Origin: Diacronema lutheri
Lineage: Eukaryota > Haptophyta > Pavlovophyceae > Pavlovales > Pavlovaceae
Reading direction: 5' to 3'
Assembly (NCBI GenBank): GCA_019448385.1
Contig: JAGTXO010000048.1
Span: 1-64,000 of the forward strand
Length of the DNA: 64,000 nucleotides
A model generated the notes under the pieces. The model made no database searches and was not told the DNA's origin. It saw only the letters and a list, made by a program, of their open reading frames with translations. Position 1 is the first letter of the stretch; the number at the start of each line of letters is the position of its first letter. The translations under genes and the position numbers were made by a program. Shown one piece after another: positions 7,630 through 35,959 of the stretch.

Positions 7630-8091
7630 AGTCTGGGGCCGTGATCGTCGTGATCGTCGTGATCGGTCGGCGCGGCGCGAAGTGAAGTATAGATGGTCAA
7701 GCCAAATCCGATCAGGGGCACGATCGCGCCCCGAGTGCAGCGCGGGCCGTTCGGAAGGACGTCCTTGTGAGGGAGCTCTTCGCGTTTGGCGAGCGGGGGA
7801 GCACGACGCGCAGCGTTGCTGCGGCGGCGTGCGGGCGGCGAGCAGCGGTCGGGCTGCTCGCGACGAGGCCGGAGCAGACGGCGCCGTGGCCGCCGGCGCA
7901 GGTGACGCGCGCCGACGAGCCGTAGCGAGCGTCCGTGATCCGCACGGCGGTTGGAGCGGGCCGGCTGGTGCGGCGCGCTCGGCCACGGGTGGCGGCGTGC
8001 ACGGTCGTGCCGCGCGCGGCACGCGTCGCCAGCCGCGCGCGACCTGGGCAGAGCCCGCAAAGCGTCGACCGCTGCGCGGCTCGGCCGTGCG
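7630..8091. other. Intergenic stretch between the Patched-like gene and the giant minus-strand block
   Basis: No convincing gene. A short minus-strand reading near 7790-7660 (VPLIGFGLTIYTSLRAAP) has protein-like composition with a hydrophobic run, but it has no start, partner exon or recognisable family. Just after the Patched stop the sequence repeats GTGATCGTC three times (about 7641-7665). This stretch would contain the 3' ends of two convergent transcripts. Confidence 0.4.
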
Positions 8092-8278
8092 TCAACGCCG
8101 GCCGCGCTTCGGCCCGCGCGCGCTGCCGCCGCCGGCACTGGCGCTGGCAGCTCCGCGGGCGGGGGTGCGGGCGCGAGAGCCGCCGCCGCCACCGCCGCCG
8201 CGCCCGCCGCCGTCGTCGCCACCGCCGTCGCCGCCGCCGCCTCCCCCGCCGTCATCGTCGTCGTCGCCGCCGCCGCCT

Positions 8279-8311
<33 letters not shown>

Positions 8312-10840
8312 CCGCCGCCGTCGCCGCTGCCATCGTCGTCGTCGTCGTCGTCGCCCTCGTCGTCGCCCTCGTCGTCGCCGTCGCACTCGTCGTCGCAGTC
8401 GTCGCCCTCGCCGTGCACCATGCGCTCCTCACGCTCCCACACCTCGCCGCGCGCCCACCAGGCGAGCACGAGGGCAAAGCGCTCAGGCGTCGACGTGGTG
8501 TCGCGCCCGGCCGCGTGCGCCGCCATGTCGTGCACGTCGTAGAAGATGTTGCGCGCGGCGTTGTAGTCGCGGTGCACGGGCTTCTTGCCGCCGTTGCACG
8601 CCGGGCAGATGACGAGCGCGTGCACCGTGCGCGTGCCGCCCTTTGCCACGGGCAGGCGCGGGTTCTGCGCGAGCTCCGCGCCGCAGCGCTGCAGCCTGCC
8701 GCCCTTGGCGAGCCGCGGCATCGAGCAGTGCATCGACGTGTACGGCTCGGGCACGAAGACGGCCGCGACGCCGCGCCGCCGCAGCTCGCGCAGCAGCCCC
8801 ACCTGGAAGGCGGGCGGCGCGCCCTTGGGCTGCGCGCCCTTGTGGTCGCGCAGCCACTTGCCCACGCACACGAGCAGCCGGTCGCGCGTCACGCCGTCGA
8901 CACAGTGCGCCGCGATGAGCGCCTCGGCGACGCGCGCCGCGTTGGACCGCCCGCCGCTGTCGCGCCGCCAGCGCTCCTTCCGGCGCGCCGGCGCGTCGTA
9001 CACGTGCTCGGCGGCGCGCTCGCGCACACCGCGCGCTCTCGCGGTGGAAGGCGATGTATTTGCCCGCGTCGAGCACCTTGGCGCTGTGCGCCTCGCCAAG
9101 CCGCGCCTCGTCCGCCTCCACGCTGAACTCCTCGCCGCGCCCGTCGGTGCGCACGCGCCGCCGCGCCGCGTTGGTCTTGGCCGTCTCGCGCGCAAAGCCC
9201 GCGGCGCGCGCGCGCGCGCGCTGCGTGAACTGCCGCCAGACGGCCGCCCGCCCGACGTGCGCAGAGTAGGTGGTGATGTTGCCCATGTTCGGGTCGGCCG
9301 CGACGACGACCGCCGCCTCGACGTCGATCGCCCGCCGCAGCTCGGAGCCGAGCGCGACGGCGATGCGCCCGTCCGGCCGGCGCCAGCGGTGCAGGACGCC
9401 CGAGCCGCCGGCCGGCGCCTGCGCCTTCGGCACGAGGACGGTCCCGACGGCGTGCACGGCGACGCCATCTGTCACCACCGACTTGACGGGCTGCCGGCCC
9501 GGGAGCGGCACGCGCGGCAGCGGCGCGAGGCCAACCCACGAGCGCCGCGCGTGCCACGGCAGATCGGCCGGCGGCCGCTCGCGCCCGGCGTAGTCGAAGA
9601 CGCGGTTGGAGATGTCGAAGCGCGTCGCAAAGACCGCGTACCTGACGCGCACGTCCGACATCGGCGGGGTGTTGCCGTTTGTGCCTGTCCACTTGATCGG
9701 CTCGCCATCGTGGTCGCGCAGGTCCAGCGCCTTGAGCCGCGCGCGCAGCTCCTTGCGCTCGTCATCCGAAAGCGTCACCCAGATGGCGCTCGCGGCGAGG
9801 CGCACGTTGCGCGGCACCTGCGCGCAGCGCGCGGCGCGCGAGCGCGCGGGCGCGTGACCAACCTGGCCGCGGGGCGGCGCGCACGGCGGCGGCGCGCGCG
9901 CTTGGGCGCTCGGCGGCGGCAGCGGCAGCCACGCCTCGCGCGCACATTGTGCGTGCGCAGCGGCGCCACATTGTACCGCGGCGGCCGTCCGGTCAGCTGC
10001 GTGTGGATGTGCGCGAGCCGGCAGAGCAGCGCCTGCCCCTCGGCCACGTGCTGCAGGGTGCGGATCTGCACGAGGAAGTAGCGCGTCGTGTGCCGGTCGT
10101 AGTTCCACCTTTTCGTGGGCGTGCACTTGTAGTCGATCTTGTGGAGGACCATGTCGGGCAGGTGGCGGTCGAGCGCGGCGGGGCAGCCGACGCGCGCACC
10201 CTCCACGTCGCCGCGCAGCAGCCGCTCGCACAGCTCGCGCACGCGCGCGTTTCGCTGCATCTCGGGCAGCGCGACGAGCGCCTCGTCGCGCTCGACTGCC
10301 GCGCGGACGACGTCGCGGAGCAGCCCGTTCACGACGCGCGATGGATGCATCAGGCACGCGGTGGACACCTGCGTCGCCTCCGCCTCGAGGATCTCCGTGA
10401 GGCCCACCGCGCAGACGGGCTGGACGCCCTCGGCCATCTCGCCGACGGCGCGCGCCGTCGCCGCCTTGGTCTGCGCGGCGGCTTGCTCGGCGGGCTTGCC
10501 TCGGGGCGCTGCACCGTACGTGCTCTCGTCCTTGTGCCAGCCGATGGCCGAGAAGATCGCACGGACGGTTCCCTTGTCCATCGTGGTCGACGTGTGCACG
10601 CTGGTCGACGGGCCGCCCGACGCCGCGCCGACGGCCTGCGCGCTCGCCACCGCAGCCTCGTCGCGCACCACCTTGTTGATGACGCGGTACGCCTGTGTCG
10701 TGAGCCTGTGCACGGCCGCCGCGATGCGCCGCAGCTCCTTCCGCGCACCGGGCTGCGCCGTCACCGCCTGCGGCCCCGCGTTGAGCGTCGAGCGCTTGAC
10801 CACGAAGCCCGGGAGCACGCTGACGCGCGTGCGCGCCGTC
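8092..10840 (-). other. Fanzor (TnpB-like) RNA-guided nuclease domain
   Basis: C-terminal part of the giant downstream frame. The N-terminal helical part (AAAVHRLTTQAYRVINKVV) resembles the Fanzor/TnpB wedge-REC region. RuvC-I is VVAADPNMGNITTYS near 9292. EPYTSMHCSM near 8745 corresponds to the conserved Glu/TS segment before the zinc ribbon. VICPACNGGKKPVHRDYNAA near 8610-8555 gives the CxxC pair and the RuvC-III RDxNAA motif. The first Cys pair of the ribbon is widely spaced, as if it carries an insertion. Fanzors are eukaryotic relatives of TnpB that cut DNA guided by an RNA from the element's end, and they often ride in transposons. The catalytic residues are present, but one change of frame inside the domain is not explained by an intron. 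I did not find a guide-RNA scaffold. Confidence 0.75.
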
Positions 10841-13800
10841 GCGCCGCCGGCGGCGCGCGCGCTCGGCGCAGCGGGCTCGTCCACGCGCGCGCGCTCGACG
10901 CCGCGCGCGCGGGGAACGCTCGGCGCGCGCGCGCCCGCGGCGTCGCGCGCGCTCGCGGCGGCACCCGCCGCGGCGCGCTTGCCCGCGGCGCCCGACTCGC
11001 CGTGCGCGCGAAGCGGCGCCGACGCCAATGCCGACGCCGCGCCCGCGCCGCCGCTGCCGCTGCCCGATACGCCCGCGCGCCGCTTCTGCTCGTCGCGCGT
11101 CTTGCGGAACTGGGCGACGAGGTCCCTGCTCACGTTGGCCTCAGGCTCCCACGTGTCGGCGCTCTCGTCGTAGCCCCGCCACCTGATCCGGAACTGGAAC
11201 GTCACCTTCTTGCCCGCCTTGCGGCGCTCGTCGACGACCGCCTCGACCTCGTACGTGCGCGCCTCCTCGTCGACGCTCGCGCCCGCCGCGCTCGCGCCCG
11301 TGTCTGGCCACCCAGCGACCGTGCCGCCCAGCCTCTCGGCGGCCGCGCGCAGCTGCCGCTCGCGCTGGGCGGCCGCGGCGCCTCGCGCGACCAGCGCGGG
11401 CAGCATGCCCGCGCCGCCCGCGAGGCCGTGCGCGCCGACGCTGGCGGTCATCAGCGCGTCGAGGCACGCGAACGTTGCGAGCGCACGCGCGCCATCGTCG
11501 CCGCCGCGCGGCTGCGAGCGCACGACGGGCGATGGCCGCGGCTCCCCCTCGGCCGCGAGCAGCGGCCAGATCGCACTGGCCAGCGCGACGGCATGCGCGC
11601 CGACCGCGACGGCCACGTCCGCGTCGAGCGGCGCAAAGTCGTAGCGCACGAGCGCGGCCGGGCGCGAGTCGTCCGTCGGCCGGTCGGCGACGAGCAGCCC
11701 GACCGGGCGCGGCGGCTCGCCGGACGGCGCGGCGACGGGCACGCAGAGGAGCACGACGAGCAGGCGCGGCGTGCCGCCGAGCAGCGCGCGCGCGGCATCC
11801 GCCCCGTCGGCTCCGCCGCGCGCGGCCGCGGCGAGCAGCTCGGCCGCGCGCGTCGGGCCCAGCGCCGTGCGCGCGTCCTTGCGCGCGCGTGCGCGGGCCG
11901 TGTACGCGGCGCAGGCGTCGTCGAGCACCGCCGCGCTGGGCGCGGTGCCAGTCGTCGCCCACGCGCGCAGCGCGTCGCGCACCCGCGTGACGATCGCCTG
12001 GTCGACCGCCGCCTCGCCGGCAGCGTGCGCCGGCGCGCACGCCGGCGGTGCGGCGGCAGGCGCGAGCGCGGGCGCGCCGTCGGCGCCGTCAACGCCGACG
12101 GCGCCGTCGGCGCGCCGCCACGCGAGCTTCGCCTCGATCTGCTGCCGGACGGCGTGGCAGTGCCGGTCGATGCCGCGCGCGTCGTCGAGCGCGGCCAGCG
12201 CGTCCTCAGCGGCGGGACGGCCGCTCGCGTCCGCGACGGCCTGCAGGCAGAGCAGCGCGGCCGCACGCGCGTTGCACGCGCTCTGCGGCTCGGGCGCGAG
12301 CGCGAGCTCGAGCTCGAGCGGCGACGCGCCTCGCGCCGCGGCGATCGCGTCCATCAGCACGTCCAACCGCTGCACCAGCGCCCTGTGCGCGTCGCGCGGC
12401 GCGCCCGTCGACGGCGCGCGCGAGCGCGTCGCCAGGAGCCCGAGCGCGCGCGCCGGCGCGCCCGCCGGCGTGTGCAGCACGAGCAGCGCCGCGCCCGCCA
12501 AGCTCGCGTTGCGCGTGACGAGCGCGAAGATGCGCGTCGCCTCGTGCGCGCCCACCGACGCCCAGATCGCAGCGCGATCGGCGTCCGTCTGCGCGTCGCA
12601 CAGGTCGCGCACGTCGTCCGGCGCGAGCAGCGCGCCGCCGCCGGCGGAGCGCGCGACGATCGCCCGCGCCTCCGCCACGAAGACGGCCTGCGGCAGGTCG
12701 GCGTGGCGCGCGTCGACGATGGCGCGCGTCGCGTGCACGCCGAGCTCCACGCCGCGGTAGAAGGCGCGCGCGTTGGCCGCGCGCGCGTGCGCCGGCCGTC
12801 CGTCCGCGTTGCGCCTCGCGCGCGCCTGCTTGCTCGTGCGCGCGAGGCCGTCGCGTGGCGGTGGCGGCAGCGTGGCGAGGAAGCGCGCGGCGGGCGGCGG
12901 CGCGCGCACGCCGCGCTGCCGCCGTGCGATGGCCGCGAGCCGCCGGCCCGCCGCGCTGCCGCCCGCGCCGACGTGCTGCCAGCGGTTGAGCGCCGCCGGT
13001 GGCGGCGGCGGCGGCGGCGCGGCGGCGGGCGGCGGCGCGACGGCGGGCGGCGGCGCGGCGGCGGGCGGCGGCGCGGCGGTGGGCGGCGGCGCGGCGGCGG
13101 GCGGCAGCGGCGGCGGCGCGGCGGCGACGGCAGCACCAGTCGGCTTGTCCGCCCACGCACCCGAGACGCTGTCCCAGGCCTTGCCCGGTGGCGCGCGCCC
13201 ACGCGGCCGCGGGTGGCGGGCTCGAGCGGCGGGGGGCGGGCGGCCGGCGCGCCAGTCGAAGACAGGTGCAACCGTGGCGGCAGGCGCCGAGTGCCGCGCG
13301 TCGGTCACAGAGCGCGTGGTGCGCGCGGCGACCGTAGCACGCCTGGCGGGCGGGCGGTGAGCAGCGCCCGCCGGCGCGCCGGCGGGCGCGGCAGCCGGCG
13401 CGCCGGCGGGCGCGGCCGCCTCGAGCCCGGCGGAGGCGCCGCGCTTGCGCTTGCGCGTGCCGCCGCGCGTGCGCCTGCGCGCGCGCCCGCCGCGCGCCGG
13501 TTCGGCCTGCGCGTCGCCAGCCGCGTCGCCGGCCGCGTCGCCGCGCCGCACGTAGACGACCGCGAACGCCTCCTCGCCGGTCCCGTCGACGCCGCCGCGC
13601 GCGCGGCGCAGGGCCGACCGCCACTGCAGCCGCCGCGCGCGGCCGGGCTCGCACGCAAACCAGCGCCCACCGCGCCTGACGACGGCCACAAAGTCGTCGT
13701 CGCGCCGCCCGCGCCGGCGCGTGCGCAGCAGCACGCACTGCACGTCGAGCCAGCCCTCGTGCCATTTGGCCGTGCTGGGGGCGACGCGAATCGACTGCGG

Positions 13801-16800
13801 GAGCTCGACGCCAAAGCCGGCGAGGCGCACGATGTGCGCGACGATGACGCTCGAAATGGCGGGGGCGCTCGACGGGTCGCCCGCTGCAGCGAGCACCGCC
13901 CCGCCCCAGTGCTCACGCGTGACGCAATCCGCGTCCTCGACGTGCACGTGCGCCACGCTCGCGCCGAGCTGGTGCAGCAACGCGCAGATGTCGGCGTCGA
14001 CCGTCCTCTCCTCCTCGGCCGCCTCGGCCGTGCCGCGGGCGGCGGCGTCGCCCGCCGGCTGCCCGAGGTACGCGATCGCCCGCTCGACGGCCGCGCCCTC
14101 CGCACGCGCTGCGCTGGCGATCGCCGCATTGCCGACGGGCGCGCGCAGCGCCGCGATCGCGTCTTGCAACGCCGTCGCGCCGCCCGTCGCCGCCGCCGCC
14201 GTCACCGCCGCCGCGCTCGCGGTGCCGTGCGCGACGGCGTGCAGCGCGGCGGCGCGCGCGGCGGGGATGCGCCCGTCCAGCGCGAGCACGAGCGGCGGCC
14301 CGGCCGGCGTCTGCTGCCGCCGGTGCCGCCGGCTCGCAGCCGGGTGGTCGGCGCGCGCGCGCTCGAGCCGCGCGCGCCGCTCGACGACGCGCGCCCAGAA
14401 GGCCTGCACCCTCGGCTGCGCGAATGCAAGCCAGCCGGCGCCGCGCGTCACGACGTGCACGACGATCCGGTCCTCGTGCCTGAGGTACTGCACATAGAGC
14501 GCTTTGCTCACGCCGAGGACGTGCATGCCGAGCTGCAGCTGATCGCGGTGCGGCTGCGGCGGCCCGTCCTCGTGCGCCGTGGCGCCCGCCTTGGTGAGCG
14601 TCTTCACCTCGACGAGGACCTGCTCGTTGTTTTCGGGGAGGATGGCGAGCCCGTCCGGCGAGAAGGCGAACGGCGCGCTCTTGTCGTGCGGGTCCGCACG
14701 CACCATCGGCAGGTTGCACACGACGGTGATGCCGTACGCGGCCGCCAGCTTGCGCAGCGCGACGGCCTCGCCGAGGATGCCCGCGGTCGTCGCCTTGGTC
14801 CGCACCTCGCGCCGCCGCCGGTGCACGTACTCGTCGGTGAGCGTCTCGTGCGCGACGCCGGCGTTGTCGTTCACGACGTCGCCAACCTTGCTGCCCGTGA
14901 CCTCCTCCCATCGCTCGTCGTGCCAGCGCGGGCTGCGCTGCGCGGGCGCGCCCGCGCCGACGGCGTCGAGCACGCGGCGCAGCGCTGTGCCGTCGGGCGC
15001 AGCAGGCACGCGCGCGCGGTCCTGGGCCTCGCGAGCGTCGAGGACGCAGCCCGTAGTGGAATCTTGGGGTAGGTCGAGCTTGCTCGCCTCGCCGTAGCGG
15101 CTCTCCAGCTGGCGCGGTGCGTCGGCAGGGCCGCCGTCCGTGCGCGCACCCGACGCGCCCGCCAGTGCACGGGGCGCAGCGTCCGAGGCGCCCGCCGCGC
15201 CCGCGCCGCCGCCAATCGCGCCAGCGCACGCGCGCGCCGCGACCTGCGGACGGCCAGCCGCAGGGACCTCGTCCGCTCGGCCGGCCGCTGCGTCGGCCGT
15301 CCGCTTGGCCACCTCGCGCACGTCTCCGAGCGCGAGCGTGGCTGGCGCCGTCCAGCTCCCGTTGCGTTTGTCCCAAAATTTGAGCAGCCCGCCAAGGAAG
15401 GGCGTGCCCGTCGGGCGGTCCTCGGGCACCTCCGCCAGGATCGCGTCGACGCGCAGCGCGGCCGCCACATCGCAAAACGCGCGCGCGGCGCGCGCCATCC
15501 GCTCGGCGCGCGCGCCGCCGTCGTCCGCCGCGCGGCGGATGGCGTGGCTCACGTGCGCGACGCGGAGCGAGACGACGGCGTGCGCCGGCGCGCCGGCGCC
15601 CGTGCCGAGCGTGTGCCGCCGGATGGCCAGCTGCCCATCGCCCATGCGCGGCGGCAGCGACGCGCACGCCGCGATGGTCGTCTTGCCGGCCGCGCTGTCG
15701 CACAGCCAGCTCGCCTCGCCGCCGCCCGCAAACTCAAAGGTCGCGAAGCCCTCGCGGCCGAAAAGCGCGACGAAGTGGTCGAGCACCGCCTTGTTGATCG
15801 CGCGCGCCGCCGGCCGCGTCGATGCGCCGCGGGCAGCGCCACCCGCCGCGCCGCGCGCATCGCTGCACGTCGCAGGGCAGGTGCAGCCGGACGCGCGCAC
15901 GCCGTCCGACCGCGTCCGCGGCAGCTCGAGCTCGCGCACCTTGGGGCAGAACCAGAGCGGGTTGGACGCCTCGAGGCACAGCACGACGAGCCGCCCGTCC
16001 GTGCCGGCCAGCGCGCGCGCGTCGCGCAGCAGCTCGACGGCGAGCTCGGACGTCGCCGCGTGCACCGCCGGCTCGCCCGTCGCGCGGTCGGGCGGGAAGA
16101 GGCCGCCGCCGACGAGCGGGCTGGGGCAGCGGCCGAGCATCACGAGCAGCGGCGGCGGCGGCGTCTGCGGCGCCTGCTGCCCGACCGCAGCCGCCGTCAG
16201 CCCGGCCAGGTCGGAGCTCGTGCGGAGGGCCTTGAGCGCGACGCGCGAGCCGGTGCCCGCCTGCTCGGAAAACGTTGCGAGCATGGCGCACGTGCTCGCC
16301 CTCGCGCCGCACTGCCAGCTGACGCGCGCGAGGAGGCCTTCCAGCGTGTCGTTTTTGCGCGGCCGCGTGACCGCGTCGAGCGCCGCCGGGCCGAGCTGGA
16401 GGCTGCCGGGCGTGACGCACAGCACCGCCTCGTGGTAGGCGCGCAGCAGCTCCCTCGGCAGCTGCTCGGCGGGCGTCGCCGCCTGCCCGCCCACCCACCG
16501 CACACCGTGGCCGCCGTCGCCCGCGCCCGCGAGCCGCACCGCCGGCCCGCCCGTGATCGCCGAGGTCGGTGGCGTGCCGAGCGCGTCGACGAGCGCGCGC
16601 ACGGGCGCGACACGCCTGCGCGCAGCGTCCGCGCCGACGGCGAGCGCGGCGATCTGAGCGCCCTCCCATGCGCGCTCCCTCGCGTCGTCCCGCGCGGCCG
16701 CCGGCGCGGCGCCCGGCCGCGCGCCGGGCGGCACCGCGCACGCCGCCGCGACGACCTCCGCGCGCGCGCCGGCGGCGTCGGGCGCGTGCAGCTGCGCGAG

Positions 16801-18205
16801 CGCGCCAAAGAGCGCGGCGGCCGAGCGGTAGCGGCCGTGCGCCGCGACGAGCGCGTAGAGCACGCGCAGCGCGGTCACGCCCGCCTGGTCGGGCGCGTCG
16901 TCAGCGATGCGCTCGACCTCCCACGTGCGCGTGGGCGGCGGGCTGCCGTCGGCCGGGTCCGGACGCAGCGCCCACGCGCGCTCGACGATCGCGTTGAACA
17001 CGTCGCGCGCGGCGCCCTCGTCAAACTCGGCGGCGCCCGCCGCGTGCGCGCACCACCCGTGCACGCGCGACGTGGGCGCGTCCACGGCGCGCTGCACGAC
17101 GAGCACCGCCGGCCGGTCGACGCAGCCGAGGCTCACCGCCGCGTGCTTGCCCTCGAGCAGCGCCGCCGCCGCAGCCTCGACCAAGGCGTCATCAGGCGCG
17201 TCGCCGACGACGACGGCACAGCCGTCGCCGTACTCGGCCTGCATCGCGGCGACGCACGACGCGACAAAGTCGCCGCCCGCGGCCGCCGCGTGTCGCGCCG
17301 CCAGCATCCGGCGCGCGATGGCAAGCCAGACGTACTCGGCCGGCGCGCGCGCGGCGCGCGCGCGAGGCACGCCGGCCGCGCCGCGTGCGCCAGCGCGTGC
17401 GCCTCCAGCGGCCGCAACGGCCGAGGCGGCTGGAGCGGCGGTGAGCGTGCGCCGCGCGCGCTTCGCCGGCCGCGCGATGGGCGATGCACCCGCCGTCGCA
17501 CCGCCCGCAGCAGCCGGTGCGGCCGCCACAGCGCCCGCCGCAACGCCACTCGTCACGACGCCCGTGGCGGGCGGCGCGGCGTCGGACGCGGCCGCCTCGA
17601 CGGGCGTCGCGCAACTACCGCCAGCGGTCGCGGACGCGCCCGGCGACGCGTCGGCGAGGAGGTGGCGCAGCACGCCGCGCGCGAGCGCGACTCGCACGGC
17701 GAGCGTCAGCGCGCGCAGGCGGTCGGAAGGCGAGGCGTCGCGCTCGGCGTCGGCGGACGTGGCGGCTGCAGGCGGGGCGGCGGGCGGCACGGCGGCGGAC
17801 TGGGCGGCCGCCGGCGCAATCTCGTCGGCCTTGGCCAGCCAGACGAGCCCGGCGACTGCGAGCACGACGCTGTACGCGCCGACATCGTCACCCGCAACGC
17901 GCGCCAGCCGGGCGTGGGCGTCGGCCTCGGACACGGCGACGTGGAAGAGCACGTCGTCGCGGGCAGCTTGCTCGGCAAACTGACGCAGCTGCTTGGCCAT
18001 CGTCACGCCGGCGACGCACGCCTCGCCCGCCTCTGCCTCGACCTGCTCGTCCTGGCCGATGGCGGACGCGCCGGCCTCGGCGCCAGCGTCGAGCGTCCGG
18101 CGGCGCTCGAGGGCAAAGCCACGCACACAGACGCTCTGGAGGCCGCCGAGCGCGCCCGCCTTCTCGTGCAGCGCGCACGACAGCTCGACCACCGAGTCCA
18201 CGCGC
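8092..18205 (-). CDS. Giant multidomain protein, downstream part: YqaJ exonuclease, chromodomain and Fanzor nuclease
   Basis: The frame is open without a stop from 18201 to 9775, about 2800 codons. The first ATG is at 18000 (MAKQLRQFAEQ), though coding-like text starts upstream. A YqaJ-type exonuclease spans about 14960-14350 (FAFSPDGLAIL, then VLVEVKTLTKAG, then QLQLGMHVLGV: the Asp, Glu-x-Lys and Gln motifs of lambda-exonuclease-like recombinases). A Pro-rich linker lies near 13130-12990. A chromodomain spans about 11290-11100 (YEVEAVVDERR, FRIRWRGY, DTWEPEANV). Fanzor homology starts near 10830. An intron at 9818-9945 (128 bases, GTGCGC to GCAG, phase 0) joins RYNVAPLRTHN to VPRNVRLAASAIW. 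Several stretches look like decayed protease folds lacking catalytic residues. The C-terminal tail is Asp/Gly-rich and ends in a basic, nuclear-signal-like GPKRGRR. Confidence 0.6.
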
Positions 18206-18250
18206 CTCGCGGCGGCGCCCCCCCCGCTCGCCGCGCGTGGCCGCGCGCAC

Positions 18251-18635
18251 GACGAACACCGTGAATTGCGCGCGCTTCGCCGCGCGCGCCGACGCGCACG
18301 CGTGCTTCAGGAGCCGGCAAAGCGCGGGCCTTTGCGCCGCTGCGCCCCGCGTGCACAGCAGCAGTTGGCCGCGCTCGTCGCCCAGCTCCTGCTCGACGGC
18401 GGCCTCGAGCGCGTCGTCCGTCAAATCGCCGTGCTCCGTCGAGGCGAGCGCGCGCGCAGCCGCGAGCGCCAGCTCGCCTGCGCCCGCGCGCCGCCGGCGG
18501 CGCGCACCGGCGGGCGCGTGCGGCGCCGACGCGTGTGACGACGCCGCCGCGTCCGCGCGCGCACACGCGGCGCGCAACGCCTCACGCGCCGAGGCGGCCG
18601 CGCGCGCCCTGGGCGCGAGCTTCAAGAATGTGCGC

Positions 18636-18728
<93 letters not shown>

Positions 18729-21700
18729 TCGCCCGCGTCGCCGGCCGGCGGCGGCGGTGGCGGCGGTGGCGGCGCGGCCACGGCGGCGGCAGCAGCGGCG
18801 GCGGCGGCGGTGGCGGCGGCGGCGGCGCCCAGCGCGGGCGGCGGCGGCGTGGCGGCGGCGGTGGCGGCGGCGGTGACGCCAGCGGCGGCCTTGGCGCCGC
18901 GCGTCTGCGGCGGCGTTTCGGCGCGATCGGGGCTGCCCCCGCCACGCACTGCGCTCGTGCCCGCGCAGACGCCGCCCGGCGCACGATCGCTGGCCGCGCC
19001 GGTCAGCGCGACGCGGAGGCGCTCGCCGACAGCGTACATGTCCGCCACGCTGAACGTGCGCGGCGCGGACGAGCAGCCCGCCGCGGCGAGCGCGTCGTTG
19101 AGTGCGCCCACTATCGCGAGGCCGCACGTCGCGCCACGCTGCGCCGCCTCGTCGAGCAGCCGCGCGCGGCGCACGCGCGAAATGTCGAGACCCGCCGCGT
19201 GCAGCGTGGCAGTTATCGCCGTGGCGAGCACGAGCGCCCGCCTGCAGGGCGACGCGAGCGTGTCGACGAGCACCGCGTCGTAGCGATGCTCGCCCGCGCG
19301 CGCGACGCGCACAAGGCGCAACGCGGTGAAATGGCCGGAGGCGAGCTGCGCGCCGTCGTCACCGCCCGCGCCGCCGCGCTCGTCCGACGGGCTCCACACG
19401 CCGATGACAGCCTGCGTCGTCGCCTCGCTGCGCAGGCGGTGCAGCAGCGCGGCGCGCTCGGCGCCGTCCTGAAACACCGCGGGTTGCGCGGCGAGCGGCA
19501 CGTGGCAGACATGCCCGCCGCCGGCCTGCCCGTGCACGCGCAGCACGACCTCGCAGCACGCGTCGACGGTTGAGGCGAGCATGTCGCCGCTGGCGATGCG
19601 CTCCACCTCTGCCTGCGGGAGGCCGGCGCTCGCGGCGGCGGCGGCCAGCCGGCGCGCAGCCGCGTCGCCCGCCCACGCAAGCAGCGCCGAGTTGGCGGGT
19701 TGGAGGGGAAGCTCCAGGGCGGCTGGTTCGGTGGTGGTAGCCTCGTTGGCAACGGGCACGTTGGCGGTGCGCACGTTGGCGGCGGGCGCTGCGGCGATGG
19801 CTGGTGGGGCGGAAGACACGCCCGCGGCGGCAGGCGCGGACGCGACAGCGGGAGCGGCTAGTGGCGCGGGGAAAACGCCGTCGGTGGCAGGCGCGGAGGC
19901 GAATGCAGGAGCAACTAGTGGGGCGGGGAAAACGCTGTCGGAGGCGGCCTGGAGGGCGGCAGCGGCAGCGGCTAGTGGAGCGGGGAAAACGGCGTCGGAG
20001 GCGGCCTGGAGGGCGGCATCGGCAGCGGCTAGTGGGGCGGAAGACACGCCCGCGGCGGCAGGCGCGGACGCGACAGCGGGAGCGGCTAGTGGCGCGGGGA
20101 AAACGCCGTCGGTGGCAGGCGCGGAGGCGAATGCAGGAGCAACTAGTGGGGCGGGAAAAACGCTGTCGGAGGCGGCCTGGAGGGCGGCAGCGGCAGCGGC
20201 TAGTGGAGCGGGGAAAACGGCGTCGGAGGCGGCCTGGAGGGCGGCATCGGCAGCGGCTAGTGGGGCGGGGAAAACGCCGTCGGAGGCGGCCTGGAAGGCG
20301 GCAGCGGCAGCGACTAGTGGGGCGGAAGACACGCCCGCGGCGGCAGGCGCGGACGCGACAGCGGGAGCGGCTAGTGGCGCGGGGAAAACGCCGTCGGTGG
20401 CAGGCGCGGAGGCGAATGCAGGAGCAACTAGTGGGGCGGGAAAATCGGCGGCAGGCGCGAAGGCGGATGCAGGAGCGGCTAGTGCGGCGGGGAAAACACC
20501 GTCGGCGGCAGGCGCGAAGGCGGATGCAGCAGCGCCCAGTGGGGCGCAGAACACACCGTCGACGGTAGGCGCCGAGACGGCAGCAGCAGCGGCTAGTGGG
20601 GCGCACAAAACACCGTCGGCGGCAGGCGCGAAGGCGACAGCAGCAGTGGCTAGTGGAGCGGAGGCGCAGGGCCACGCGCGCGCCAGCCGTGCAAGCCCAA
20701 GCCGCGCGCGAGCGACGCACGCGCCGATGGCCGAGGCGGCGGCGCAGGCCACGACGTGGCATGGCACCGGTGTGGCCAGCCGCTCGCGGGTGTGCACGTC
20801 GAGCCGCGCCCCACGCCAAGAGCGGCGGCGCGCTGAACGGAGGCGCACGACCCCGATCGATCCGCCCGCGCACGCGCGCGCCGGCTCAGTGTGGCCAACG
20901 CGCGCCGCTATGCGAGGCGCGCGCGCGATAACGGCGGCTGTCGGCCGTGGCGTGCGCGTGGCGGCGCCGTGGCGACGGGCGCGGCACACGAGCCGCTCGG
21001 GCGCGCCGCCGCCGCGCGGCACGATGTCGAGCAGCACGGTCACGCCGCGCGCGCGCGCGACCGCCGTGCACGCGAGCCGCACGGGCAGCGGCGGCCCGTC
21101 CGGGCGCGCGAGCGCCGCCACCTCGGCGTCGGTGAGGCTGTGCAGCTCGCGGCGCGCGCGCGCGAACGCGGCTATGTCCGCGCGCAGCTCCGCGTCCGTG
21201 CCGAGCGCGGCGCGCGCGTGCACGGGGAGCGACGCGCGCAGCGCGTGGAGCACGCCGCCGCGCGCGCCGCGCGGCGCCGGCGCGCGCTCGCGCTCAGCGC
21301 GCGCGGCGCGCGTGAGCTCGCGCACCGCGCGCGCGAGATTGCGCCGCGCGGCCGCGACGGGAGGGCTAGGTGCGCGCGCGCCGGTTGTAGCGCGGCCGCG
21401 CCGAGTTGAGGGGCGGCGGACGCGGTGCGTACGCCGCGGCGCGGCCCGCGCGCCAAAAGGCCGGCGGCGGGCGCAGCTCCGTCGCGTCGACCGCGGCCGC
21501 GAGCGCGCCGAGCGCGGCGTCGCTGTCGCCCGCCGCGTCGGCCGCGTCGACGAGCACGAAGAGCGCGCCGAGCGCGCGCGACGCGGCCGCCTGCGCGGCG
21601 GTGGGGCGGGCGCAGGCAGCGACGCATGCGGCCGCCATGCCGCGCGCCGCGGCGAACACCGGTGACGTGACGGCCGCGCCGATGGCAACGGCGGCGGCGG

Positions 21701-24700
21701 CGACGGTGGAGGCGGTAGCGCCGGCGATGGAGGTGGCAGCGGCGGCGGCGCTTGCCATCGCGCGGCGCGCGAGACGCGAGGCGCCACCGACCGCCGCAGC
21801 CGCAGCGCGCGCTGCGCGCGCGCCGGTGGCGCGCATCGTCGCCGCGCCAGGCGCCGCCGCGCCGATGCCGCCGGCGCCCGCGCCGTCGCCCCTCTCGGCC
21901 GTGCAGGGCTCCGATGACGGGCCCGGCGTGCGCTGGCGCGTGATGCGCGCGCCGAGGCGCGCGCTCCGCGCCGCGCGGCCGGCGACGTCGAGGACGCGCC
22001 GTGCGCGCGCCGCGCAGAGGCCGCGCGCGCGCGGCGGCGCACCGACAGGCGCCGAGCGCCGCGGCGCGCACGCCGGCGCGTCGCTGTCGGGTTGCGCAGC
22101 GCGCGCGCGGGAACTCGGCGCGGCGTGTGCGGGCGGCGGGCGCGCGCCCGCGCGGCGCAGAGGCGCGAGGCGCCGGCCGCAGACGAGGCGTGTGCGCGGC
22201 CAGGACGGTGAGGGCCGCAGGGCGCCGTCGACGTCGCGCATCGGCGGGCCGCGAGCGCGCCGCGCAGCCGTGCGGCGCGCACAAGGCGCTCGGCGGCGCG
22301 CGCGCCGCACGGCGCGCGCGGCGGCGCGCACGCCAGCGACGGCTGCGGCCACGCCGCGCGCCAACACGGCCGCGGCGTGCGCCATCGCACCGAGCACGGC
22401 GCGTGGCGCGCCGAGCAAGCGCAGCAAGCGCGACGCCGTCGCGCGCGCCGGCGCACCGTGTGCAGGGGCCTCGCCAGCGCCAGCACCGACGCCGCCATCG
22501 CCGCAGCCGCAGGTGGCGTCGCCGCCGCCGCAGGCGTCGCGACGAACGCCGCCGCCGCCGAAACAATCGCCGCACACGTCGCCGCCGACGTTGCCACCCC
22601 AGCCGCCGTTGCGTGCGCAGGTGGCTGCGGCGCGTGCGTGCGGGAGGCGTGCCGTGCGGCGCGCTTCACACGGGCTGCGCGACGCGAGCGACGCCGCCGG
22701 GGTCCCCGCTGCGCCAGGCGCGCCGTGCGCGCCAGCCTCGCCGGCCTCGCCGGCGCGCGGTCGCGCGCTCGCCTCGACGTGGCCGCCTCCGCCGCCATCG
22801 CCGCCGTCGAACCGGGCGGCGGAGGGCTGCCGCTCGAACCGCTCGTCGGCGTCGGCCGCCACCGCCGCCTCGCGCTCCGCCGCCGCGGCGGCCGCACGGC
22901 GCGCGTGGCGGAGCGCGCGGCCGCCGTCCGCTGCGCGGCGTGGCGGCGCGGGCGCCGCCTTCGGCGCGCGCGGCCCCTCGGCGCGCTCGCGGAGCACGGC
23001 GAGCGGCGTGCCCGTGGCGACGCTCGCGCAGACGCGCCGCAAGGCGGCGCTTACGCACGCGTGGACGACGCGCGCCGTCCGCTTGTCGGCGGCGCGCGCG
23101 GCGCGGCGCGCGGCCTTGGCGGCGGCCTTTTTGGCGCGCCTCCGCTCCGCCTGCTCCGACAGCGCGCGCGCCTGGCGCTCGGCTGCGAGCGCGTCCTCGG
23201 GCGAAACGGTCGGCCTCGGCGGCCGCGCGCGCGCGCTGCGACGCTGCGCGCTGCGGCGGTCGGACGGCGGCTGCCGCGGCGGCGAGGACGGCGGGCGCGA
23301 GCTCGGCGTGGGCGACCAATCGCCGCTGACGGTTGCGAGCGGCGCAAACGGGTTGTCGTCCCCGCACCCCGCGGCGTGCGACAGTGCACGCGGCGTCGGG
23401 CGCCGGCCGACCGCTGGCGGGCCCCACTCGGACGGCGGCTCCGAGGGCGAGCGCGCCGTCGGCGCCGCGCGTTGCGCGGCCGGCGGCGCCTCCCGGTCCA
23501 GCGCCGCCTGCTCTCTCGCCGCGGCCTGCTCGTCACCCTCCGGCACGCCACGCGGCGCGAGCACCGCGGTGGCGCAGCGCGTCGCGTTGAGCAACGCCGC
23601 CTCCATCTGCCGCACGCTGGCCTTGGCGCACGCCACACCCTGTCTCGCCCGGCGCAGCGCCTCGTGCGCGCGGCGCACTTCCGCGTCGGCATCTTCGCGC
23701 ATGCCAAAGTGCGCCTGTTGCAGCCGCAGGTCCGCAGGGCGCCCCTGCGCGCGAGGGGCACGGGCGCGGCGGCGCGCAGGTGACGGAGCTGGCGCGCCGT
23801 TCTGCGCTGCGCGCACGCCAATCGACGGGCGCGCGCGCGGCGGGGCGCGCGCGCGCGCGCGCGCGCGCGCTGCCTACCCAGCCGCCGGCCGGCTCGCGCG
23901 AGCGCGCCAGCTGCTCCGCCGCCTCGGCGTCGAGCACGCGCTGCTGCGCCTCCTCCTCGCCCAGTGCAGCGAGGTGCAGCCGGCGGGCTGCCTTGCGGCA
24001 GTTGCCCTCCGCCTTGCCCACGGCCTTGCGCGCCGCGTCGACGGGGTCGTCGTTGGCTCTGGCGCGCCTGCGCTTGCCCTTGTCGGCGGGCGGCGGCTCG
24101 GCGCGCTGCAGCGTGCCGAGCGCGTCGTCGGCTCCGCGCGCGGCCGCCCGCGGGCGGCGGGCCCCAAAAAGCGCACCGGTCGCCGTGCGCGCCGCGCAAG
24201 CAACGACCAGCGCTGACATGCCGGCGAAGACCGCACCGCCCAGCGCCACGGTTGCCACGATGCGCAGCGTCCCGTGCGCAGGCCGCGCTGCCTCCGCCGC
24301 TTTGGCGGCCTCGCGCGCGCGCGCATCGGCGGCTCTCATCTCGTGCAGCAGCCCGGCCGCGCCGCTCGCGCCGTCGCGGCCGCGCGCGAGCTCGCACAGC
24401 ACCGCCGCCGCGCGCCGCGTGGGCTCGCGCGCGAGCAGCTGCGCGCCGCCGTCGGGGCGCAGCTTCTCAACGAACTCGACAAACGTCGCGTCGCGCCAGA
24501 GGGACATGCGGAAGGCCCTGTGCACCGCCCCCTCGTGCTCGCGCATCCGCCGTGCCGCCCGCCTGCCGTCGCGCGCGTGCGCGTGCGCGGCCGCGTCGAC
24601 TCCCGCGACGCCGCGCTGCGCGTCGCGCGCGGCCGACGACGGCGCCGCCGCGCTGCCCGCCAAGGGCGCCGCAGCGGCGACGCGCGCGTGCGGAGCGACG

Positions 24701-27552
24701 GGATCGCCGGCGGCCGGCGGCTCGGCGCGCTGCGGCGTGCCGTTTGCTCCGCGCGCGGCCGTCCCGGGGGAGATGGCCGCGATGGCGCCGCCAGCCGCGC
24801 CGCGCGCCAGCCACGCGCATAGGCTGCCGACGAGCTCGCCGAGACCCCCGACGGTCGCCGCGGCGGCGAGTGCGCCGGGCTTGCCGGCCGACAGCGGCTC
24901 GCGAGCGTCGTCGTCGCAGCCGCCGGCACCCGTCTTGGCGAGTGCGTCGCGCTCGCCCTCGACGCCCGCCACGACCGCCGCCCCTCCGTCGTCCGCCGCG
25001 CCGGCCGCGCGCGCGGCCGGGCGCAGAGGAGGCGTGCCGGTGCAGCCGTCGCCGCTCGTCTTCGCCGTTTCCTCCACTTTGGTCACTTCGTCGCCACCTG
25101 CGCCATCTCCGACGCCGGGGCCCTTGGTCACGCTTGCCGCCATGCGCGCCGTGCCCGCCGGCCAGCCCGCCGACTGCTCGAGCGCGGCGGCGAGCGGCGC
25201 GACGCGCGTCGACTCGGGCGCGCTCTCGTCATCGGGCTCGAGCGCGTTGTGCAGGCGCGCGAGCGCGCGCTCGACGGCCGCGGCGCCACTGCCGGGGGCG
25301 CGGCTCGCCGCGCGCACCGCGCGCCGCCAGGCCGGCGCGAACATGAGCGCCGGCTCGAGCGCCGCGAGCGCGCGCGCCTCGCGCGCGTCGCTCGCGCCGA
25401 GGCGCGGCGGCACGCGCGCGGCTCCGCGCGGCGCGGTGCCTCGGAAGCGTGGGCTCAGCGTGTAGGCGAGGTGCTGCGGCACGCCGCGCGCCTCCGCGCG
25501 CGCGCGTCCGTCCTCGACCTCGCGCCGCGCCTTCGCGATCGCCGGCGTGGCGCGCGCGAGCCAGTCGGGGTCGGCGGGCAGGTGGATCACGACGAGAATC
25601 GGCGCCCAGTCCAGCCGCGGGTTCTTGTGACGGTCGGGCACGACCCACACGAGCAGCACCGTGCCCTCCGCGCCGCACGCCGCCTCGTAGATCCTGGGCT
25701 GCGAGCGCCAATCGGGCCTGACGCGCAGCGCCCGCGCGTGGTCGATGGCGGCGGCGCGGTCGCCATTGAAGTGAACCGTCGTCACCTCGCCGATGACGGA
25801 CCGGCCGGACCGCCAGCAGAACACCGCGTCCGCCGACCCGCCGGCGATGGCCGCGAGCGATTCGGGCGCGGCGAGCCGCGGCAAGCCCTCGAAGGCGGCA
25901 AAGTCCTCGTGCGCATTGTACACGCCGCCCCAGCCGTCGTGCGCGTACGCGCGCGCGGCCGCTCGTACCGCGCGCGGCTGGTTCTCCACGCCCGACGTCA
26001 TGTGCCATGTCGTCCCCGCGAAGCCGGGCTCGCCCAGCTCGGCCCGCACGACGGTACCGTACCCCGCGCCCTGCGTCGGGGCGGCGAGGTGGTGCATGCC
26101 CGCGCCGGTCACGCCCTCCGTGCGCTGCCGCGTGACGATCGTGCCCGTCGCGTGCGCGAAAAGCGTGTCGACCACGGCGGGCGCGCGCCCGCTGTTCGCC
26201 CGTAGCCGCGCCCTGCCCGCTTTTAGCTGCTCGGGGTCCTTGGCGTCGTACACGCGCGCGTCCGCGTCGCCCTCATCAGGCGCAGTGTAGACGCAGCGGC
26301 GTTCGAGCGGCGCCGAGCCACCGCCGTCCGCCGCCGCCGGCGAGGTTGGCGCCGCGCCCGCCGCCACCGCGCTCGTCGCCGCCGTGCCCGTCGCCACCGC
26401 CGCAGCCGCCGCGCCCGCGGGGTCGTCGTCCCCGTCCTCCGCGCCCTCCCCGTCGTCAGCGGTGGTGGCGTCGCCATCGTCCCCGTCGCCCTCGCCCCCG
26501 CCGAGGCTGCTGAATGGTCGGGGCCCCCACGCCGAGGCGGCGCGCCGCTGCGGCGCACGCGGCGGTGGCGCTCGCGACGGCGGCCTTGGCGCCGCCGCGC
26601 CGCGCGGCCTGGCCGCCGTCGACAGCGCGCGGCCTGCAGCGCCCGTGAGCGCGTCGAGCGCGGCCGTGCGTGCGATGCGGTCGTCGGGCGCGCGCAGCGC
26701 CGCCTCGACGGCCTGCAGCAGCCCGTCGGGCGCGGATCCGCCGACACTGGCATCGCACGCCTCGGCGAGCCGCGCGGCCTCGGCGAGCCGCGCGGCCTCG
26801 CGGGTGAACGGGCCGAAGCGCCTGGCGCGGTCGCCGAGCAGAGCGCCGATGGCGGCGCGGAGCGTGCGCGCGCGGGTCTCCTCGTACGCGGCCGTCGTGA
26901 GGCGCGCGAGGCGCGCGTCCAAAGCCTTCTTGATGTCGACAAGGACACTCGCGCGGCGGCCGTAGAGCGTCGATGCGCTCGCCACGACCTCGGCCGCGAC
27001 TGTTGCCGCGGCGAAGCAACACGCGGCCCCACTCTGCGGGGGCGCCTTGAAGGCATCGATGGGCGGCGCTGTTCTGCCGATGCGCTGCGCAAGCTTCTTG
27101 ATGAGCACGCCGGCCGCCGTGGCGTACGCCGATTCGCCGTTGCCCAAGGTGCGCGAATCGGCGAGCAGGGCGAGCGCGGCGCCGGGCGGCGCGCCGCGCT
27201 GCGCGGGCGGCGCGAGGAGCAGGTACGCCGCCGTCCAGTGCACGAGGCCGCTGGACGCGCGGAGGCAGAGCGGTAGCACGACCACGAGCACCTGCCCAAA
27301 CCGGTCCGCATCCGCGCATGCTTTGCGCAGGTTGCGCAGCGCCACCTTGAGCGCATGCTGCGAGCACCCCGTGTCGCCCACCCTAACCCTGCTCGTGCCG
27401 AAATCCGCGTAACGCAGCAGGGCGATGAGGCAAGTGGATGGGACCACGTGGGGGTGGGTATCTCCCGGCGACAGAATGGTGCTGAGGGCCAGCGAGAAAC
27501 TGTCCGAGCCGCCCCGCCCGCCGGGCAAAGCGTCCTTCACGGAGTCCTCCAT
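18251..27552 (-). CDS. Giant multidomain protein, upstream part: two Ulp1/C48-like protease folds and a nuclease-like domain
   Basis: Starts at ATG 27552. Exons are 27552-23878, 23744-21433 and 21365 to about 18251; the introns (23745-23877 phase 0, 21366-21432 phase 2) are GT-AG with matching phases. Residues 100-180 look like an Ulp1/C48 peptidase: His105 (LVHWTAAYLLL), Asp132 (LLADSRTL), then Gln173 and Cys178/179 (QSGAACCF). Near 26000-25500 a segment with AVFCWRSGRSVIGEVTTV resembles a PD-(D/E)XK nuclease core. A membrane-like helix (VATVALGGAVFAGMSALVVA) lies near 24260. Exon 2 is Ala/Arg-rich with a Cys-Gly-rich patch. Exon 3 carries a 57-base repeat tract, a second C48-like fold near 19360-19080 (SGHFTALRL, AVLVDTL, QRGATCGLAIV) and a long Ala run. 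No known full-length relative is recognised. How this part joins the downstream part near 18.2 kb is not resolved. Confidence 0.55.
18630..18730 (-). repeat. GGC/GCC trinucleotide run encoding poly-alanine
   Basis: About 30 tandem GGC units on the plus strand, read as a long alanine run in the giant minus-strand frame. Ala/Pro-rich text continues to about 18900. Such runs change length easily and are hard to assemble. Confidence 0.9.
19806..20655 (-). repeat. Coding tandem repeat, 57-base (19-residue) unit with higher-order order
   Basis: About 15 units inside the giant minus-strand frame, each encoding a 19-residue Ala-rich module such as APLVAPAFASAPATDGVFP or APLAAPAVASAPAAAGVSS. Unit types recur as blocks: the GVSS-ending type returns after four and then five units (228 and 285 bases), so blocks were duplicated as well as single units. 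Every unit keeps the frame. The upstream units (toward 20650) are more diverged than the downstream ones, so the downstream blocks look younger. The role may be a flexible spacer between protein domains. Confidence 0.9.
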
Positions 27553-29454: not shown

Positions 29455-29485
<31 letters not shown>

Positions 29486-30477: not shown

Positions 30478-30508
<31 letters not shown>

Positions 30509-35853: not shown

Positions 35854-35959
35854 TCGTTGTGCGCGGGAGATCACGCTGCAGGCGGCTCCACAGTAGGTTC
35901 GAGAAAAAAAAAAGCTGGGCCAACGGTCAGTCGAGCGCCACAAGCAATCCTCGGGAGCC

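What the first reader, a model, noticed from the sequence alone, without database searches (positions are those of the whole stretch)
8092..27552. Giant minus-strand locus joining C48-like proteases, YqaJ exonuclease, chromodomain and Fanzor
One strand carries about 19.5 kb of nearly continuous coding sequence. A single open frame of some 2800 codons contains a YqaJ exonuclease, a chromodomain and the start of a Fanzor nuclease. Further upstream lie Ulp1-like protease folds and a nuclease-like domain. I know of no described Fanzor carrier with this set: RNA-guided cutting, DNA end resection, chromatin reading and de-modification of proteins in one product or one operon-like unit. Introns are well phased, so it looks recent or still in use.
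Basis: partly seen in the sequence, partly recalled or inferred. Interest (0 to 1): 0.9.

Follow-up and report, generated by a model that had tools for sequence, protein, structure and literature searches.

The report
Giant algal transposon carrying chromodomain-Fanzor nuclease
The locus is one damaged copy of a huge (about 31 kb) jumping-DNA family present in roughly 200 copies in a single-celled marine alga; it carries an RNA-guided type of DNA cutter fused to a chromatin-reading module and inserts mostly next to one short DNA word, which makes it an unusually testable case of how such cutters serve their transposons.

Summary
Chromodomain (Pfam 3.6e-12), lambda-type/YqaJ exonuclease (PHROG 5.5e-17) and Fanzor zinc ribbon (4.4e-6) hold. 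Ulp1/C48 folds were not confirmed. A USP-type deubiquitinase and a Pif1 helicase split over frames lie upstream, outside the interval.

The stretch is the inner part of a 31.6-kb element (window 7687-39285, minus strand) of Diacronema lutheri. The genome holds 221 3' ends and 203 5' ends (up to two mismatches; reversed control 0). The 131 scored YqaJ regions are 99-100% identical; 64 lie in a frame of about 4,500 codons. The window copy is frameshifted, also inside Fanzor. Size classes of 31, 29, 26 and 21.5 kb share intact ends.

In 18 of 19 site pairs there is no target duplication. The element lies 3' of CTATATA[C/G/T] at 20 of 23 distinct sites, and its own 3' end is CTATAC; 43 of 72 CTATATACG words checked abut an element. 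These asymmetric ends resemble Helitron2 and IS200/IS605, but no HUH transposase was found, so membership is not claimed. Best reading: a giant, young, motif-specific transposon whose chromodomain-Fanzor presumably cuts empty sites.

The parts
7687..39285 (-). Complete transposon copy, 31,599 bp; coding-strand 5' end at 39285 (GGCGCGGTCC...), 3' end at 7687 (...GACCATCTATAC)
   Evidence: family-wide edges in DNA searches, junction alignments, length
39286..39293 (-). Target motif CTATATAC left 5' of the element (genomic flank)
   Evidence: varies between sites; 20 of 23 distinct sites are CTATATA[CGT]
7687..7692 (-). Element's own terminal CTATAC, resembling the target motif
   Evidence: 29 of 30 distinct 3' junctions identical; 221 3' ends genome-wide
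8092..9817 (-). Fanzor exon 2: RuvC residues and zinc ribbon; frameshifted near 9.0 kb in this copy, open 574 codons in 5 of 5 other copies, which were picked for a long upstream frame
9818..9945 (-). Phase-0 GT-AG intron of 128 nt in the Fanzor part
   Evidence: sequence; same splice RTHN|VPRN in NCBI protein KFE25_006464
9946..10821 (-). Fanzor N-terminal part, continuous with the chromodomain frame (start approximate, by eye)
11101..11253 (-). Chromodomain; Y, W and Y line up with residues of HP1 in 1kna
   Evidence: Pfam PF00385 3.6e-12; PDB alignment
14515..14925 (-). YqaJ / lambda-exonuclease-like nuclease; GxxxE, PDG and ExK residues read by eye
9775..23873 (-). Region that is one open frame of about 4,500 codons in many other copies; interrupted in this copy
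   Evidence: with count (64 of 131 scored copies at 4490-4525 codons)
19799..20661 (-). 57-bp / 228-bp tandem repeat array inside the big frame
23533..27570 (-).
   Evidence: present with 1,345 codons in the five other copies read; no Pfam match at E up to 0.1; two pieces at E up to 10 gave none or only matches under cutoff
31010..31714 (-). USP-type deubiquitinase with Cys-box and His-box
   Evidence: PF00443 4.3e-8, 33.5 bits, cutoff 23.9; alignment to USP12 (E 0.045)
33519..35926 (-). Pif1-type helicase split over two or more frames (lesions likely, introns not excluded)
   Evidence: PF05970 1.8e-24 and PF21530 5.3e-13; the same 686-codon frame reappears in 4 of 5 other copies, the C69 copy is rearranged here
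36423..37294 (.). 872-bp internal palindrome (91% self-complementary), probably a nested insertion
   Evidence: seen in 24 of 24 scored hits
39229..39246 (.). Perfect 18-bp subterminal palindrome GTACGACCCGGGTCGTAC near the 5' end
   Evidence: 0.006 of shuffles reach it

Best explanation
The finding lies inside one copy of a giant DNA transposon family of the haptophyte Diacronema lutheri. SHOWN: a 31-kb unit with fixed ends, about 200 copies of its ends, 99-100% identity in the parts compared genome-wide, insertion 3' of CTATATA[C/G/T] in most sites sampled, no target-site duplication in nearly all pairs sampled, element 3' end CTATAC, and several amplified size classes that keep both ends. 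SHOWN: it encodes a very long frame carrying a YqaJ/lambda-type exonuclease and a chromodomain directly continuous with a Fanzor-type nuclease, plus a USP-like deubiquitinase and a split Pif1 helicase. INFERRED: it moves by a strand-transfer mechanism of the Helitron2 / IS200-IS605 type. The nuclease cuts 3' of a TATAC-like word, the target word stays at the 5' junction, and the element brings its own word at the 3' end. The transposase is either unrecognised here or supplied in trans. INFERRED: Fanzor, encoded beside the 3' end, takes its guide from the 3' flank, uses the 5' insertion word (CTATATAC) as target-adjacent motif, and recuts empty sites so that the element is copied back. YqaJ would resect the cut end; the chromodomain would hold the nuclease on methylated-histone chromatin, where silenced copies lie.
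For: Edges: of 40 scored hits 37 stop at window 7680-7690 (the other three are the window itself and two loci that share its flank). Of 24 scored hits 20 stop at 39286-39300 and 3 at 39191-39199; the 24th is the window itself. Ends: 221 and 203 with up to two mismatches, reversed-pattern control 0 and 0. Protein identity 99-100% in 131 of 131 scored copies (239 candidates). No duplication in 18 of 19 pairs: no shared string beyond the mispaired maximum of 11. Target: 20 of 23 distinct 5' flanks CTATATA[CGT]; no 3' flank motif except +1 G in 17 of 30, p 0.0007. Motif use: 134 CTATATACG words against 12 of the reversed word; 43 of the 72 listed on contigs C1-C48 abut a listed 5' end. Junction variation sits on the 5' side (7 of 23) and hardly on the 3' side (1 of 30), Fisher p 0.015. 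Size classes of 62 pairs: 31 at 30-33 kb, 8 near 29, 8 near 26-27, 14 near 21.5-22, 1 of 12.6. Fanzor: published D-X(125,275)-[TS][TS]XX-C4-RD motif met in near-identical intact protein P0003, 0 of 1000 shuffles (motif from the abstract of PMC3627910). Precedents: Fanzor1 in Chlamydomonas Helitron2 elements, with a fixed 5' tetranucleotide and no duplication at full-length 5' ends (PMC3627910 sections 8 and 9); SpuFz1 adjacent motif 5'-CATA (PMC10432273 passage).
Against: No HUH, Y1, DDE or tyrosine-recombinase domain was found in the 26 frames scanned at E up to 0.1, the ten pieces at E up to 10 or an HUH-motif scan; smaller frames and many plus-strand frames were not scanned. Y1_Tnp is absent from the whole genome. 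The only Helitron Rep in the genome (C63) shows no protein similarity to the helicase or USP in the 4.8 kb I could read, and only two short DNA matches of 30 and 50 bp to the element. The first bases are GG, not T or TC. One pair has a 13-bp duplication. No empty site was found for six joined sites (40 of 762 candidates scored), so absence of duplication rests on junctions alone. No RNA evidence. Fanzor's guide and motif are untested; the TnpB model gives 14 bits against a cutoff of 100, and no Fanzor chain was found among solved structures. pN/pS 0.96 among copies gives no sign of selection for the proteins.
Confidence: 0.6

Rival explanations
1. Tyrosine-recombinase (Crypton-like) element: a circle carrying TATAC recombines with genomic TATAC, leaving a short direct repeat at both ends.
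For: TATAC stands at both junctions in most copies and there is no long duplication in 18 of 19 pairs.
Against: Variation sits almost only on the 5' side (7 of 23 versus 1 of 30). Target information extends to -8 on the 5' side and hardly at all on the 3' side, whereas recombinase sites have two arms (recalled). No recombinase domain in the frames scanned.
Confidence: 0.15
2. Non-autonomous giant Helitron2: Pif1 is the remnant of RepHel, and a Rep supplied from elsewhere moves all copies.
For: Pif1 helicase present but split over frames; shorter size classes with intact ends amplified; Fanzor-bearing Helitron2 precedents; 5' palindrome.
Against: No Rep found in the element; the genome's single Rep locus shows no clear similarity in the 4.8 kb read; 5' GG instead of T; terminal inverted repeat inconclusive (9 of 10 letters, reached in 2.7% of shuffles at that length but in 22-26% at three other lengths); no clear 3'-end excess (221 versus 203).
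Confidence: 0.3
3. Endogenous virus or Polinton-like provirus.
For: YqaJ and deubiquitinases also occur in large DNA viruses (recalled); Fanzor does (PMC3627910 Table 1).
Against: No capsid, packaging ATPase, PolB or integrase match among the 26 frames scanned; no relative found in IMG/VR by four scans, which reach close relatives only, or in phage records; about 200 dispersed copies mostly at one target word.
Confidence: 0.03
4. Assembly artefact or segmental duplication rather than transposition.
For: Many copies lie at contig ends, where a long repeat breaks an assembly. Two other loci share the window's 3' flank.
Against: 23 distinct 5' flanks and 30 distinct 3' flanks among the sampled junctions, nearly always at the same element base and motif.
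Confidence: 0.02

Closest known systems
CRe-1, -2, -3: Fanzor1-bearing Helitron2 elements of Chlamydomonas reinhardtii (PMC3627910, sections 8 and 9 read)
   Same: Fanzor cargo; insertion directly 3' of a fixed short motif (TTTT there); no duplication at full-length 5' ends; internal deletions; algal host
   Different: Those share their ends with a RepHel Helitron, are often 5'-truncated with 3'-end excess, and truncated copies carry duplications. Here 31 kb, motif CTATATA[CGT], chromodomain fusion, YqaJ, USP, no Rep found, and no clear 3'-end excess (221 versus 203).
IS200/IS605 insertion sequences with TnpB
   Same: TnpB-type nuclease gene beside the 3' end; target word kept 5' of the left end; own cleavage-like word at the right end; no duplication (IS605 details partly recalled)
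   Different: No TnpA (Y1) match anywhere in the genome; eukaryote; more than ten times larger (IS size recalled)
SpuFz1 and other characterised Fanzors (PMC10432273, passages)
   Same: D-x-N, E, zinc ribbon and final D line up by eye with D383, N385, E541, D606; 5' A/T-rich adjacent motif (CATA for SpuFz1)
   Different: SpuFz1 is a single protein of 633 residues (SPu-1-1p, PMC3627910); this one continues a frame of thousands of codons and follows a chromodomain
Chromoviral integrase chromodomains (recalled, not tested)
   Same: a chromodomain on a mobile-element DNA-cutting protein
   Different: there on a DDE integrase of LTR retrotransposons, here on an RNA-guided type of nuclease
Large DNA transposons with cargo such as Starships (recalled)
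   Same: tens of kilobases, multi-gene cargo
   Different: Starships use a tyrosine recombinase captain; none found in the frames scanned here

Membership tests
Fanzor / TnpB-type nuclease | D-X(125,275)-[TS][TS]XX-C4 zinc finger-X(5,50)-RD motif | tested here: met
   met in P0003 and in the C71 copy (gap of 184 from DPN to TS), 0 of 1000 shuffles of P0003. The window copy breaks it by a frameshift.
Fanzor / TnpB-type nuclease | profile match to the TnpB/Cas12f zinc-ribbon (TNB) domain | tested here: met
   PF07282 27.2 bits and 28.0 bits for P0003, cutoff 26.3
Fanzor / TnpB-type nuclease | full-length match to TnpB model or to a solved Fanzor | tested here: inconclusive
   NF040570 14 bits, cutoff 100; no Fanzor chain at E up to 1
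Fanzor / TnpB-type nuclease | guide RNA from the element end and RNA-guided cleavage | not testable with these tools
   RNA fold of the last 254 nt z = -2.0 is no proof
Helitron2 | RepHel protein with HUH Rep domain | tested here: not met
   no Helitron_like_N in the 26 element frames scanned or ten pieces; the genome-wide search finds one Rep locus, on C63, outside any copy seen
Helitron2 | Pif1 helicase | tested here: met
   PF05970 1.8e-24, split over frames
Helitron2 | no target-site duplication, fixed motif 5' of the insertion | tested here: met
   18 of 19 pairs; 20 of 23 flanks; the motif itself differs from that of the Chlamydomonas elements
Helitron2 | T at the 5' end | tested here: not met
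   5' end is GG if the variable CTATATAN is flank
Helitron2 | hairpins at both ends and asymmetric terminal inverted repeats | tested here: inconclusive
   5' palindrome reached in 0.006 of shuffles, 3' stem 0.36, inverted repeat 0.03-0.26 by length; DNA folds z -0.3 to -1.9
IS200/IS605 | Y1 transposase TnpA | tested here: not met
   PF01797 gives no match in the genome; control rings in 5 of 14 named genomes
YqaJ/lambda exonuclease family | family profile and catalytic residues | tested here: met
   PHROG 434 5.5e-17; 1 of 150 scored places in the genome over the Pfam cutoff; the window piece is 1 bit under it and under the TIGR03033 cutoff; residues by eye
Chromodomain | profile match and aromatic residues at the HP1 cage positions | tested here: met
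   (cage positions recalled)
Ulp1/SENP peptidase C48 | profile or fold match | tested here: inconclusive
   no C48 match in six pieces; structure pLDDT 38.5, one piece only
Endogenous virus / Polinton | capsid, packaging ATPase, PolB or integrase | tested here: not met
   no match among the 26 frames scanned

The most novel reading that the evidence does not exclude
A eukaryotic giant transposon that spreads by RNA-guided homing. The chromodomain brings Fanzor to silenced (histone-methylated) chromatin, Fanzor uses the transposon's own insertion word CTATATAC as its adjacent motif and the 3' flank as guide, the encoded lambda-type exonuclease resects the cut, and repair copies a 31-kb unit into the site. 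Repeated over time, this would have occupied a large share of the genome's CTATATACG words.
Probability: 0.22. Interest if true: 0.92.

Novelty: new variant of a known kind. Interest (0 to 1): 0.78.

Why it matters
What Fanzor nucleases do for the transposons that carry them is open; the 2023 Fanzor paper says so itself (PMC10432273 discussion passage). Here nature has done much of the experiment. About 200 young insertions of one Fanzor element in one small genome give the insertion word, the candidate adjacent motif, the candidate guides (3' flanks) and deletion classes. A chromodomain continuous with an RNA-guided type of nuclease would be a first natural case of chromatin targeting of such a cutter, as far as listings from an open-access library go. 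The 62 complete copies that I could pair already make 1.72 Mb, 4% of the assembly. The genome paper's repeat passage reports 22.9% repeats and names LTR and LINE elements as the main annotated classes.

Tried and rejected
Subtelomeric element: many copies sit about 6.57 kb from contig starts, but that equals the distance from YqaJ to the element end, and contigs such as C1, C12, C3 and C33 begin or end at the element edge; they simply break at the repeat. 'TATAG' target duplication: dropped when the junctions of ten further copies showed the left side constant. Promoter targeting of a TATA box: at the window site both neighbours (Patched SSD gene on +, LRR gene on -) have their 3' ends towards the insertion, so no promoter is hit there; other sites were not examined. 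Ulp1 domains: no support. HUH motif scan of all frames of at least 70 codons: only chance-like matches. Relatives: IMG/VR scans gave none, phage records none. In the large protein set the YqaJ-chromodomain-Fanzor query gave none, the Pif1 query gave the window's own protein and one distant helicase, and the Fanzor query gave P0003 and P0004. These searches reach close relatives only, each scored about 8,000 candidates, and alanine-rich words probably flooded. Rfam: no match.
Full report
WHERE IT IS. The window is G000:C98:1-64000 of a 43,492,796-bp assembly in 103 contigs. The genome paper of Diacronema lutheri gives 43,502,671 bp, 103 contigs and 73.25% GC (PMC8379373, passages only). An NCBI protein of that species (KFE25_006464) lies on a contig of 1,863,016 bp, exactly the length of contig C69 here. 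The host genes around the element are ordinary: a Patched/sterol-sensing gene to the left; LRR, Lon and kinesin genes to the right.

THE OBSERVATION. The 2,843-codon minus-strand frame is there, with a chromodomain (Pfam 46.4 bits) and a YqaJ match. The YqaJ match is weak by Pfam in this copy but firm by PHROG (RecE-like exonuclease 5.5e-17); TIGR03033 gives 3.9e-7 at 30.3 bits, under its cutoff of 68. Another frame carries the Fanzor zinc ribbon. Ulp1/C48 folds found no profile support in six pieces, and one structure prediction from a single sequence failed (pLDDT 38.5).

THE REAL UNIT. A 301-residue piece around YqaJ matched 131 places in this genome, all at 99-100% protein identity; 131 of 239 candidates were scored, so the count is a lower bound. 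DNA searches across the edges stop sharply: 37 of 40 scored hits at window 7680-7690, and 20 of 24 at 39286-39300 with 3 more at 39191-39199. Junction reads place the element at 7687-39285, 31,599 bp. End patterns give 221 3' ends and 203 5' ends with up to two mismatches; the reversed-pattern control gives 0. From the 100 listed of each, all exact, 62 pairs form size classes: 31 at 30-33 kb, 8 near 29 kb, 8 near 26-27 kb, 14 near 21.5-22 kb and one of 12.6 kb, together 1.72 Mb. If the average length holds for about 200 copies, the family would be some 13% of the assembly (inference; contig breaks cut many copies). Amplified shorter classes with intact ends suggest that the missing parts are not needed in cis. 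Full-length alignment of five copies to the window gives 98-99.8% identity over most pieces, less in the 5' module of the C69 copy.

THE WINDOW COPY IS DAMAGED. 64 of 131 scored copies have a frame of 4,490-4,525 codons and 82 of 131 at least 4,490; here it is 2,843. In five copies that I picked from those rows and read in full, the Fanzor second exon is open for 574 codons in 5 of 5; in the window it runs out of frame inside the nuclease part. Two further places, on C97 and C75, also show a 2,843-codon frame; the C97 one shares the window's 3' flank. The Pif1 region is split over frames in the window, the same 686-codon frame reappears in 4 of 5 other copies, and the C69 copy is rearranged there; lesions are likely, introns not excluded. 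Differences among five open copies have pN/pS 0.96: they are young, and no purifying selection among them is visible.

THE PROTEINS. In the copy on C71 there is no methionine between the chromodomain and the Fanzor part as I delimit it; the first one is 84 residues inside it. The two are therefore probably one protein, unless an internal start or an unseen splice intervenes. The splice RTHN|VPRN that I inferred (intron 9945-9818, 128 nt) is also that of the NCBI protein KFE25_006464, whose first 107 or so residues are a 94%-identical Fanzor piece. The published Fanzor/TnpB motif is met by P0003, a 99%-identical protein from a source given only as 'ena', and by 0 of 1000 shuffles. The residues D-x-N, E (VPEPYTS) and final D correspond by eye to D383, N385, E541 and D606 of SpuFz1 (PMC10432273, passage). 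The chromodomain aligns with HP1 1kna with its Y, W and Y (cage role recalled).

HOW IT INSERTS. After dropping duplicates and short flanks, 23 distinct 5' flanks and 30 distinct 3' junctions remained of 25 and 34. Positions -8 to -2 carry 1.5-2.1 bits: CTATATAC 15, CTATATAG 3, CTATATAT 2, and TTATATAC, CTATAGAG, TGTATTAA one each. The 3' flank carries nothing beyond a G at +1 (17 of 30, p 0.0007). The element's 3' end is ATCTATAC in 29 of 30. In 18 of 19 pairs there is no shared string beyond the mispaired maximum of 11 letters; one pair shows 13 bp next to the junction, which could also be a local tandem repeat of the target. The genome holds 134 CTATATACG words against 12 of the reversed word. 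Of the 72 listed on contigs C1-C48, 43 abut a listed element 5' end, and 43 of the 99 listed 5' ends there have exactly CTATATAC. The occupied words borrow their last G from the element, so the share of all CTATATAC sites that are occupied is lower than 43 of 72. For six joined sites no empty site was found; 40 of 762 candidates were scored.

MECHANISM. Target information on one side, variation on that side, a similar word at the element's own 3' end and no duplication together fit strand-transfer transposition as in IS200/IS605 and Helitron2 better than a recombinase with two-armed sites. The closest precedent is the Fanzor-bearing Helitron2 group of Chlamydomonas, which inserts 3' of TTTT without duplication at full-length 5' ends (PMC3627910 sections 8, 9). 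But no Rep, Y1, DDE or recombinase domain was found in the 26 frames and ten pieces scanned or by motif. Y1 gives no match in the genome, and the single Rep locus shows no clear similarity in the 4.8 kb that I could read. I therefore do not file it as a Helitron or an IS605. The role of Fanzor as a cutter of empty sites, with the insertion word as adjacent motif, is an inference from family knowledge: the Fanzor paper raises the same parallel and leaves it open, and SpuFz1's motif is CATA.

NOVELTY. Word searches of the open-access library (listings only) and term searches inside PMC3627910, PMC10711439 and PMC10432273 showed no description of this element, of a chromodomain-Fanzor fusion, or of Fanzor with YqaJ. 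Repbase, supplements and subscription journals were not available. New variant of a known kind: a Fanzor-carrying, duplication-free transposon, some fifteen times longer than SPu-1 (about 2.1 kb), with a domain set of its own and an unknown transposase.

Noticed in passing
window 41127-41372: Tandem array of about 63-bp units containing nine TTAGGG words and TGTGGG/TGTAGGG runs within the Lon protease gene region (40942-44547 -); each unit starts with the same CGCAGCCACGAGAGCGC, so it looks like a tandemly duplicated telomere-like insertion.
   Followed up: partly
window 36423-37294: 872-bp palindrome with GTAGGGT-type ends inside the element, present in 24 of 24 scored hits; probably a nested element carried along in the burst.
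   Followed up: no
G000:C97 around 276.5-286 kb and G000:C98 around 216-226 kb: Two other loci share the window's 3' flank (Patched gene side) as well as the element. C97 also has a 2,843-codon frame, C98:224 kb has 4,508 codons: the host locus with its insertion seems duplicated or present as haplotypes.
   Followed up: no
G000:C69 copy (L050-L053), window-equivalent 32.8-36.9 kb: The C69 copy is 98-99% identical over most of its length but only 88-96% in the helicase part of the 5' module and about 2 kb shorter, as if subfamilies exchange 5' modules.
   Followed up: partly
P0004 / KFE25_006464, contig of C69 length: Annotated host protein that starts with a 94%-identical Fanzor piece and continues into SAM domains: an older, diverged copy captured in, or mis-joined to, a host gene.
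   Followed up: partly
query 865-964; 31 rows at 100% identity: A 100-bp repeat family, identical at 31 listed places, lies beside several of the insertion sites (C69 1.69 Mb, C71 0.245 Mb, C75 1.26 Mb); its nature is unknown.
   Followed up: no
G000:C63:35738-36019 (L099): The only Helitron Rep match in the genome (86 bits), one place; worth testing as a helper for the ends of this element.
   Followed up: partly
window 49566-56522: A single 2,318-codon plus-strand frame joins TPR, VHS and kinesin-motor matches; one gene or several fused by a lack of stops in GC-rich DNA.
   Followed up: no
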